64,000 bases of DNA, from assembly GCF_000151205.2 (NCBI RefSeq), contig NC_016051.1, forward strand, positions 1,302,001 through 1,366,000. The letters run 5' to 3'. Below are positions 42,601 to 54,045 of the stretch, one piece after another. Numbering within the stretch: the first letter of the stretch is position 1; every line of letters begins with the position of its first letter. The notes beneath the pieces were generated by a model, which worked only from the letters and a program-made list of their open reading frames with translations, did not search any database and was not told the origin of the DNA. Both the position numbers and the translations under genes were made by a program. The DNA comes from Thermococcus sp. AM4. GTDB lineage: Archaea; Methanobacteriota_B; Thermococci; Thermococcales; Thermococcaceae.

Positions 42601-45711
<3,111 letters not shown>

Positions 45712-47480: not shown

Positions 47481-47659
47481 CTTACCCCCGAGGGGTCCGC
47501 CTTTCGGCGTTTCCTCGGGAGCGCACCTTTTTGTGACCCGGGCTGGAGGGCGGGGTTCATCGTTGGGTGCTTTGCACCCTTTCCCCCCGACGCCGCCGTC
47601 TTGGCGCCCGGGTGTTTTGCCCCCTCTTCGGGGGCTCCACCCAATAGGGCGGAACTCCA

Positions 47660-52183: not shown

Positions 52184-52888
52184 TTATTGAAGGTACCCTT
52201 TCTTCTGAAGCCAACTATAAACATCTTTTGCCAACCACCTTTTTGGAACGAGGCTACCACTGTCATAATCTCTTTTTATATCAGAGTTCCCATACTCATT
52301 AACAAGACGTTTTAAGTATTCAGGGAAGTTCTTTCTTAGATAGTTCTCACATACTACTACAATCATAAGATAGAAACGTCTCATAAACCAAGGCTTGTCC
52401 TCAGGCTCACTTTTGTTTCGTATATACTCAAGGTATGGTCTAATTGCTATAAACGAACGAACGACAAGACCTCCAAATTCTTCTTGGATAAAAGTTTCAT
52501 CAATAAATCCTTTATAGACATAATAACCAACCTTATTAAACGCAACGCTAACAAAACGAACAATTTGCCAGTTTTTATCATGATCTTTTCCAGAGAATAT
52601 TTCATCCGGGCTCCTCTTTTCTTTCGCCCATTGAGAAATTATGTTCAGATCTTGTTTAATATCATTGCTAAGGAATTCATATGTTTTATTAAGAGCGTCG
52701 AATCTCAACTGCTGGAGTGTCAAATCCAATTGATATATTGTCACTGCCATAATAACTGTTGCTATTGTTGTTATTGCAGTCAGAACAACATTGGTCGCAT
52801 CAAAATTTTTCGTCAAAGACCATGCAATAGTCGATATTATTAATATCATAACACTAGAAATTAGCGCAATAAGTTTAACATGGCGCAT
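52184..52888 (-). CDS. AT-rich membrane protein, DUF4760-like
   Basis: 234 residues with two N-terminal membrane segments (LIALISSVMILIISTIAW and VVLTAITTIATVIMAVTIY) and a cytoplasmic helical part (LRFDALNKTYEFLSND, YYVYKGFIDETFIQEEFGGLV, AIRPYLEYIRNK). This two-helix plus soluble layout resembles DUF4760-type proteins. The DNA is strikingly A+T-rich compared with its neighbours, with many ATA, AAT and TTT codons, so it is likely transferred. No GGAGG-type ribosome site stands out. Function unknown. Confidence 0.7.
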   Translation of the reverse strand: MRHVKLIALISSVMILIISTIAWSLTKNFDATNVVLTAITTIATVIMAVTIYQLDLTLQQLRFDALNKTYEFLSNDIKQDLNIISQWAKEKRSPDEIFSGKDHDKNWQIVRFVSVAFNKVGYYVYKGFIDETFIQEEFGGLVVRSFIAIRPYLEYIRNKSEPEDKPWFMRRFYLMIVVVCENYLRKNFPEYLKRLVNEYGNSDIKRDYDSGSLVPKRWLAKDVYSWLQKKGYLQ

Positions 52889-52915: not shown

Positions 52916-52979
52916 ATATATCAGCCAGGAATCCGGTCATCATCCCGAGGTCAGGTTCGAGAGTGCTCATCACGTTGGG
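52916..52979 (-). ncRNA. C/D box sRNA (2'-O-methylation guide)
   Basis: On the minus strand: box C GTGATGA (52973-52967), a 12-base guide (52966-52955), box D' CTGA (52954-52951), a 7-base spacer, box C' ATGATGA (52943-52937), a second 12-base guide (52936-52925) and box D CTGA (52924-52921). The two 12-base spacings are exactly those of archaeal C/D sRNAs. Ten bases of the D guide, CGGATTCCTG, are complementary to 23S rRNA (plus-strand 43261-43270). The fifth base above box D would direct methylation to the G at plus position 43267. The ends of the transcript are estimated. Confidence 0.82.
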
Positions 52980-52990
52980 GTGGCCACCCC
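52977..52990. repeat. 14-bp perfect palindrome beside the sRNA
   Basis: ggggtggccacccc reads the same on both strands and lies just upstream of box C. It could be an operator, a terminator-like hairpin or a precursor stem. Confidence 0.5.
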
Positions 52991-53038: not shown

Positions 53039-53539
53039 ATGAGCGTTTCAGTGAAACAGCTGAGCGGCAAGATTCCTTTGGCACTCGTCACAATAAGGCC
53101 CGCGAGGCTCTTCGACATTGGTGAGATAATGCGGATCGAGAGGGAATCCTTCCGCGAGGCCTATCCAAGGGGGCTCTTTCTCGTCTTCCTGGAGAACAAC
53201 CCCGAGACGTTTCTCGTCGCCGAGTACAATGGAAAGGTCATAGGATACGTCATGGCCTACCTCCGCCCGGACCTTGAAGGACACATAATGAGCATAGCCG
53301 TTGACAAACGCTACCGTGGGAACGGCATAGGCTCGGCCCTGCTCACCGAGGCGATAGACAGGCTCATCGCGCGGGGGGCCCGCTACATCGGCCTCGAAGT
53401 TCGTGTGAGCAACGAAAAGGCCATAAAGCTCTACGAGCGCTTTGGCTTCCGGAAGGTGAAGCGGATTATCGGCTACTACTCTGACGGCGAAGATGCATAC
53501 TACATGCTCCTGCCTGCTGAGGAATGGAGGGGAAGCTGA
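53039..53539 (+). CDS. N-terminal acetyltransferase (Ard1/RimI-like GNAT)
   Basis: 166 residues. The acetyl-CoA loop is IAVDKRYRGNGIGSALLTEA (about 93-112), with the N-terminal PARLFDIGEIMRIERESF and C-terminal LYERFGFRKVKRIIGYY typical of archaeal Ard1. It acetylates protein N termini. ATG 53039 lies about 22-30 bases after a cttaaaaac TATA element, so the message is probably leaderless. The stop overlaps the endA start by one base. Confidence 0.9.
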   Translation: MSVSVKQLSGKIPLALVTIRPARLFDIGEIMRIERESFREAYPRGLFLVFLENNPETFLVAEYNGKVIGYVMAYLRPDLEGHIMSIAVDKRYRGNGIGSALLTEAIDRLIARGARYIGLEVRVSNEKAIKLYERFGFRKVKRIIGYYSDGEDAYYMLLPAEEWRGS

Positions 53540-54045
53540 TGATAGTCTTTTACCTGAGCGGGGACAGGGTCTTCTCGACCGACCAGAACGCGATAAACGG
53601 CCTCTACAACAAGCGCCACTTCGGGAAGCTGGTGGAGGGCAAGCTCTTCCTCTCGTTGCTCGAGGCAACTTATCTCGTCGAGAGGGGCAAGATAGAGGTC
53701 AGGGACGGGAAGAGAAAACTAACCGTCGAGGAGCTCATGAACCTCGGAAGGAAGAGGGACGAGCTGTTCGACGCCAAGTATCTCGTTTACAAGGACCTGC
53801 GCGACAGGGGCTACACCGTCAAGTCCGGCCTTAAGTTCGGCTCGCACTTCCGCGTTTACCGCAGGGGCATGGACGAGCACTCCCAGTGGCTCGTGTGGGT
53901 CCTACCTGAGAACTCCCGCCTGAGCCCGAACGACATAACCGCTCGCGTTAGAGTAGCTCACGGTGTCAGGAAAAACATGGTGATGGCGATAGTTGACGAA
54001 GATGCGGACGTTACCTACTACAAGGTAGAGTGGACTAAGTTTTAG
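53539..54045 (+). CDS. endA: tRNA-splicing endonuclease
   Basis: 168 residues, the short homotetramer-type archaeal EndA. It cuts bulge-helix-bulge motifs in pre-tRNA introns and pre-rRNA. The catalytic triad is visible as the Tyr of FRVYRRG, the His of RVAHGVRK and the Lys of that segment, with LPENSRLSPNDITARVRVAHG. ATG 53539 is six bases after GGAGGGG; the ATG at 53524 lies before the ribosome site and was rejected. Confidence 0.95.
   Translation: MIVFYLSGDRVFSTDQNAINGLYNKRHFGKLVEGKLFLSLLEATYLVERGKIEVRDGKRKLTVEELMNLGRKRDELFDAKYLVYKDLRDRGYTVKSGLKFGSHFRVYRRGMDEHSQWLVWVLPENSRLSPNDITARVRVAHGVRKNMVMAIVDEDADVTYYKVEWTKF

What the first reader, a model, noticed from the sequence alone, without database searches (positions are those of the whole stretch)
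52916..52979. C/D box sRNA with two guides matching adjacent 23S rRNA segments
All four boxes and both 12-base spacings are present. The D guide has 10 bases (CGGATTCCTG) complementary to 23S at plus 43261-43270, predicting 2'-O-methyl G at plus 43267. The D' guide's GCACTCT (7 bases) matches plus 43250-43256, just four bases away and in the same order, though its register is not canonical for the D' site. Two independent complementarities in one short rRNA stretch are unlikely by chance.
Basis: partly seen in the sequence, partly recalled or inferred. Interest (0 to 1): 0.7.

Follow-up and report, generated by a model that had tools for sequence, protein, structure and literature searches.

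The report
sR5 C/D-box guide RNA, Thermococcus

Summary
Window 52976-52920 (minus strand) is a complete archaeal C/D box sRNA and matches Rfam family sR5 (RF01304) at 49.4 bits, above its cut-off of 40. All four boxes and both 12-nt guides are present. The D' guide has a canonical, in-register target at plus 43293-43302 (9 Watson-Crick pairs and one G-U pair; Gm predicted at plus 43300), 33 nt from the D site. This is the best rRNA site by pairing and by duplex energy. So this is a standard double-guide sRNA in an established family. Expression and methylation were not tested. Side observations: sR5 is absent from about a quarter of good Thermococcaceae genomes although rRNA targets stay intact; a palindrome unique in this genome lies just upstream of the sRNA.

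The parts
52920..52976 (-). sR5 C/D box sRNA (Rfam RF01304 match, model 1-53 of 53)
   Evidence: cmscan 49.4 bits, gathering 40, E 2.5e-8 in the whole window
52967..52973 (-). C box GTGATGA (RUGAUGA)
   Evidence: sequence
52955..52966 (-). D' guide GCACTCTCGAAC (12 nt)
   Evidence: sequence; GCACTCTCGAA core nearly invariant in genus g1
52951..52954 (-). D' box CTGA
   Evidence: sequence
52944..52950 (-). D'-C' spacer CCTCGGG (7 nt; only 3 nt in several Pyrococcus homologues)
52937..52943 (-). C' box ATGATGA
   Evidence: sequence
52925..52936 (-). D guide CCGGATTCCTGG (12 nt)
   Evidence: sequence; conserved in 62 of 94 Thermococcaceae genomes at up to 2 mismatches
52921..52924 (-). D box CTGA
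   Evidence: sequence
43260..43271 (-). D-guide target in 23S rRNA (10 WC pairs 43261-43270 plus G-U at 43271); predicted 2'-O-methyl G at plus 43267 (aligned to E. coli A2309)
43293..43302 (-). Canonical D'-guide target in 23S rRNA (9 WC pairs and 1 G-U), 3' strand of the hairpin aligned to E. coli H81; predicted 2'-O-methyl G at plus 43300 (E. coli G2276)
   Evidence: best D' site by register and by energy; co-variation
43250..43256 (-).
   Evidence: out of register; not conserved between guide and rRNA
52977..52990 (.). Perfect 14-bp palindrome GGGGTGGCCACCCC, 3 nt upstream of the C box
   Evidence: only copy in this genome; recurs upstream of sR5 in 20 of 31 distinct g1 loci

Best explanation
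The locus is the Thermococcus orthologue of sR5, an archaeal double-guide C/D box sRNA. Shown here: the box anatomy, the family match, and conserved guide/target complementarity at two 23S sites 33 nt apart. Inferred from the family: the RNA is transcribed, its C/D and C'/D' motifs form a K-turn and a K-loop (or short K-turn) that bind L7Ae and Nop5, and fibrillarin methylates the rRNA nucleotide paired to the fifth guide base upstream of each D box. That is G at plus 43267 (D guide; hairpin loop aligned near E. coli 2309, H84 by my recollection) and G at plus 43300 (D' guide; 3' strand of H81, E. coli 2276). Because both guides must open these rRNA hairpins to pair, a transient folding-chaperone effect is possible but was not tested.
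For: Rfam sR5 above gathering. Same architecture in 6 of 6 Thermococcaceae genera and 62 of 94 genomes, including genomes whose contig lengths I recognise as T. kodakarensis (2,088,737), P. abyssi (1,765,118) and P. horikoshii (1,738,505). The D guide pairs with its own 23S in all 29 genomes where both were read. D' guides of three genera, with different letters (g1 GCACTCTCGAAC, g13 GCGCTTCCGATC, g14 GTGCCCTTGATC), each have their single best 23S site at the same offset (+32) with 9-11 contiguous pairs including N+5, following rRNA changes at that hairpin. The canonical D' site is the lowest-energy rRNA site for the guide. Two targets within 100 nt is the usual design: 262 of 489 archaeal C/D sRNAs in Dennis et al. 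2015 (PMC4644070).
Against: No transcript or methylation data were available. The D' duplex has only 9 WC pairs plus one G-U with nothing paired next to the D' box. In Pyrococcus the D' duplex contains an internal mismatch or a bulge, and in two g14 genomes the N+5 pair is G-U. The one genome read from g11 (G062) has a D' guide that no longer fits the site. Complete g1 genomes without sR5 keep identical targets, so the modification is dispensable or made otherwise there.
Confidence: 0.93

Rival explanations
1. One reading: the D' guide really contacts plus 43250-43256 (rRNA AGAGUGC), giving two contacts four bases apart.
For: 7 contiguous WC pairs exist; the rRNA stretch is conserved.
Against: It does not include N+5. 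Homologous D' guides in g13, g14 and Pyrococcus lose the match while this rRNA stretch is unchanged. GCACTCT also occurs at 44455, and 3.8% of random 12-mers match as well nearby. Duplex energy -12.7 against -16.8 kcal/mol at the canonical site.
Confidence: 0.03
2. Single-guide sRNA: only the D guide is productive (Gm at plus 43267) and the D' guide merely anchors the RNP in H81 without efficient methylation.
For: D' pairing is weaker, has a mismatch or bulge in Pyrococcus and G-U at N+5 in two g14 genomes. Dennis et al. describe 16 double guides with a non-productive partner.
Against: In g1, including this window, N+5 is a WC C-G pair within a 10-nt duplex, and the D' guide core is strongly conserved.
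Confidence: 0.2
3. A decayed or unexpressed sRNA gene that only retains the sequence.
For: The family is lost cleanly in many relatives; no expression data for this species.
Against: All boxes perfect, both guides conserved while the spacer and flanks vary.
Confidence: 0.03

Closest known systems
sR5 (Rfam RF01304), C/D box sRNA, Pyrococcus/Thermococcus
   Same: Whole-model match above gathering; identical D guide CCGGATTCCTGG in genomes identified by length as P. abyssi and P. horikoshii; same two 23S target regions.
   Different: D'-C' spacer is 7 nt here against 3 nt in those Pyrococcus copies; D' guide letters differ, partly tracking rRNA changes in H81.
[quoted passage not shown] 2015, PMC4644070)
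   Same: Two guides, N+5 rule, both targets within 100 nt of one rRNA.
   Different: Nothing of substance; the site lies outside the hotspot helices named in the paper's text.
sR7 (RF01310) and snoPyro_CD (RF00095)
   Same: Weak sub-threshold matches to the boxes only (22.7 and 19.6 bits).
   Different: Below their cut-offs of 37 and 45; guides differ.

Membership tests
Archaeal C/D box sRNA | C (RUGAUGA), D', C', D (CUGA) boxes in order, about 60 nt | tested here: met
   Exact boxes at 52973-52921 (-)
Archaeal C/D box sRNA | Two 10-13 nt guides, each ending at a D or D' box | tested here: met
   Both 12 nt
Archaeal C/D box sRNA | Guide-target duplex covering the N+5 position | tested here: met
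   D: 10 WC pairs; D': 9 WC pairs and 1 G-U; both include N+5 as a WC pair
Archaeal C/D box sRNA | Expressed, bound by L7Ae, Nop5 and fibrillarin | not testable with these tools
   No RNA or protein-binding data for this organism
Archaeal C/D box sRNA | 2'-O-methylation at the predicted nucleotides | not testable with these tools
   P. furiosus RiboMeth-seq data exist (PMC7758197), but site tables are not in the text held
sR5 (RF01304) | Covariance-model score above gathering (40 bits) | tested here: met
   49.4 bits, full length
sR5 (RF01304) | Same guides and targets as the Pyrococcus members | tested here: met
   D guide identical; D' target at the same offset, with mismatch or bulge in Pyrococcus

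The most novel reading that the evidence does not exclude
The palindrome GGGGTGGCCACCCC just upstream of sR5, the only copy in this genome and kept as a palindrome with changing outer arms in most sR5-bearing Thermococcus, is a dedicated control element of this one sRNA gene (a regulator site or a 5' hairpin of the precursor), so that methylation of this part of the 50S subunit would be regulated.
Probability: 0.15. Interest if true: 0.4.

Novelty: already known. Interest (0 to 1): 0.12.

Why it matters
As a finding it is routine annotation: sR5 is in Rfam and double-guide sRNAs are the common archaeal design. Its modest value is a corrected, testable prediction (Gm at two named 23S nucleotides, not one plus an off-register contact). 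It is also a natural experiment: closely related Thermococcus species with identical rRNA targets either carry sR5 or have a clean empty site.

Tried and rejected
tRNA target for D' (GTTCGA resembles the T-loop complement): rejected because an in-register match would need G at position 61, which is C in tRNAs (own knowledge), and the GAAC end is not kept in other genera. mRNA targets of D': 11-mer matches in the genome are about as frequent as for the reversed control pattern. 16S targets: none better. Replacement sRNA in sR5-less genomes: no C/D-like context with the D guide core. Rfam sR7 and snoPyro_CD: below cut-off. Supplementary tables of T. kodakarensis sRNAs could not be opened; a search of the main text of PMC9014305 found no entry at the orthologue's coordinates.

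Full report
What is there. The minus strand of window 52976-52920 contains GTGATGA-GCACTCTCGAAC-CTGA-CCTCGGG-ATGATGA-CCGGATTCCTGG-CTGA, a textbook archaeal C/D box sRNA. Rfam calls it sR5 (RF01304) at 49.4 bits over a gathering score of 40, full length. The window carries a 16S-tRNA-Ala-23S operon of archaeal type on the same strand.

D guide. It pairs by 10 Watson-Crick pairs with 23S at plus 43261-43270, plus a G-U at 43271. A 10-pair match including N+5 somewhere in 16S or 23S happens for 1.9% of random 12-mers, so one sequence alone is suggestive rather than proof. The guide is present with its boxes in 62 of 94 Thermococcaceae genomes and all six genera there. A scan of 84,980 species genomes with the exact pattern returned only contigs titled Thermococcus, Thermococcaceae or Thermococci.

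D' guide. I searched the rRNAs for the best in-register site and found plus 43293-43302: ten contiguous pairs (9 WC, 1 G-U) including N+5 at plus 43300. A random guide does this within about 100 nt of the D site 0.8% of the time.

Comparative test. I read sR5 homologues and the matching 23S from the same genomes and scored each guide against its own rRNA. The plus 43250 stretch is GCACTCTACGG in nearly all, but D' guides of other genera (GCGCTTCCGATC, GTGCCCTTGATC, GCGCCATCGATG) no longer match it. At the canonical site the rRNA itself changes between genera (GCACCCTCGATA, GCGCCCCCGATA, GCGCCCCTGATA and others). In genera g1, g13 and g14 the guide remains paired, and its best site in about 3.27 kb of DNA centred on this part of 23S is always at +32 from the D site. 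Pyrococcus copies keep most pairs but with a mismatch or a bulged A, and the one g11 genome read has diverged.

rRNA context. Aligned to E. coli 23S, the predicted methylated nucleotides fall at A2309 (D) and G2276 (D'); counted from the Rfam start they are 2404 and 2371. The D' target is the 3' strand of the hairpin matching H81, and the D target is the loop and 3' side of the hairpin GGCGGGUCAGGAAUCCGCC. Helix names are from my own knowledge. Both guides must compete with local hairpins.

Mechanism. The rule of methylation at the fifth nucleotide upstream of D or D', and the L7Ae-Nop5-fibrillarin RNP, are established (PMC4644070; PMC7089733). Double guides with targets within 100 nt are about half of known archaeal C/D sRNAs. 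Nothing here calls for a different mechanism. Transcription and methylation in this organism are inferred, not shown. RNA-seq supports many T. kodakarensis C/D sRNAs (54 in PMC4247193; 61 in PMC9014305), but I could not see whether the sR5 orthologue (2002457-2002514 minus) is one of them, because the supplementary tables were closed.

Neighbourhood and loss. The sRNA lies divergently from a GNAT acetyltransferase gene (53039-53539 +) followed by a tRNA-intron endonuclease gene (53524-54045 +). In genomes without sR5 the same acetyltransferase is present and its upstream region, with the same CTTTTAAG promoter-like motif in most g1 loci, holds no C/D RNA. No other C/D-like context with the D guide core is found in them. 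Of 74 good-quality genomes, 19 lack the D-guide pattern, yet seven g1 genomes without it that were read (G001, G004, G006, G007, G012, G018, G021) have identical 23S targets. So the modification is dispensable or otherwise supplied there.

Palindrome. GGGGTGGCCACCCC at 52977-52990 ends 3 nt before the C box. Its core occurs once in this genome, and GTGGCCAC is present upstream of sR5 in 20 of 31 distinct g1 loci, with outer arms changing together in several. Its role is unknown; it could be a regulator site or a 5' hairpin of the precursor.

Verdict. The sRNA and the D target are confirmed; the D' target is corrected; the element belongs to a known family. Low interest.

Noticed in passing
window 52977-52990: Perfect palindrome GGGGTGGCCACCCC directly upstream of the sR5 C box; only copy of its core in this genome; recurs upstream of sR5 in 20 of 31 distinct Thermococcus (g1) loci, sometimes with changed but still complementary arms.
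   Followed up: partly
L175-L190 (acetyltransferase loci of sR5-less genomes): sR5 is cleanly absent opposite the same acetyltransferase gene in many complete Thermococcus genomes, while the 23S target sequences read in seven of them are identical to those of sR5-bearing species.
   Followed up: partly
window 52184-52888 (-): A/T-rich ORF (35% GC against 55% for the window; weak DUF4760 match) lies between sR5 and the FecCD transporter gene; in several relatives the transporter start appears to follow sR5 almost directly, suggesting an insertion here.
   Followed up: no
window 47532-47635 (-): H/ACA RNA Pab19 homologue immediately upstream of the 16S rRNA gene, as described for T. kodakarensis.
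   Followed up: no
G000:C1:2080831-2080883 (+): Second, sub-threshold sR5-model match (31.5 bits) elsewhere in the genome, probably another C/D box sRNA with different guides.
   Followed up: no
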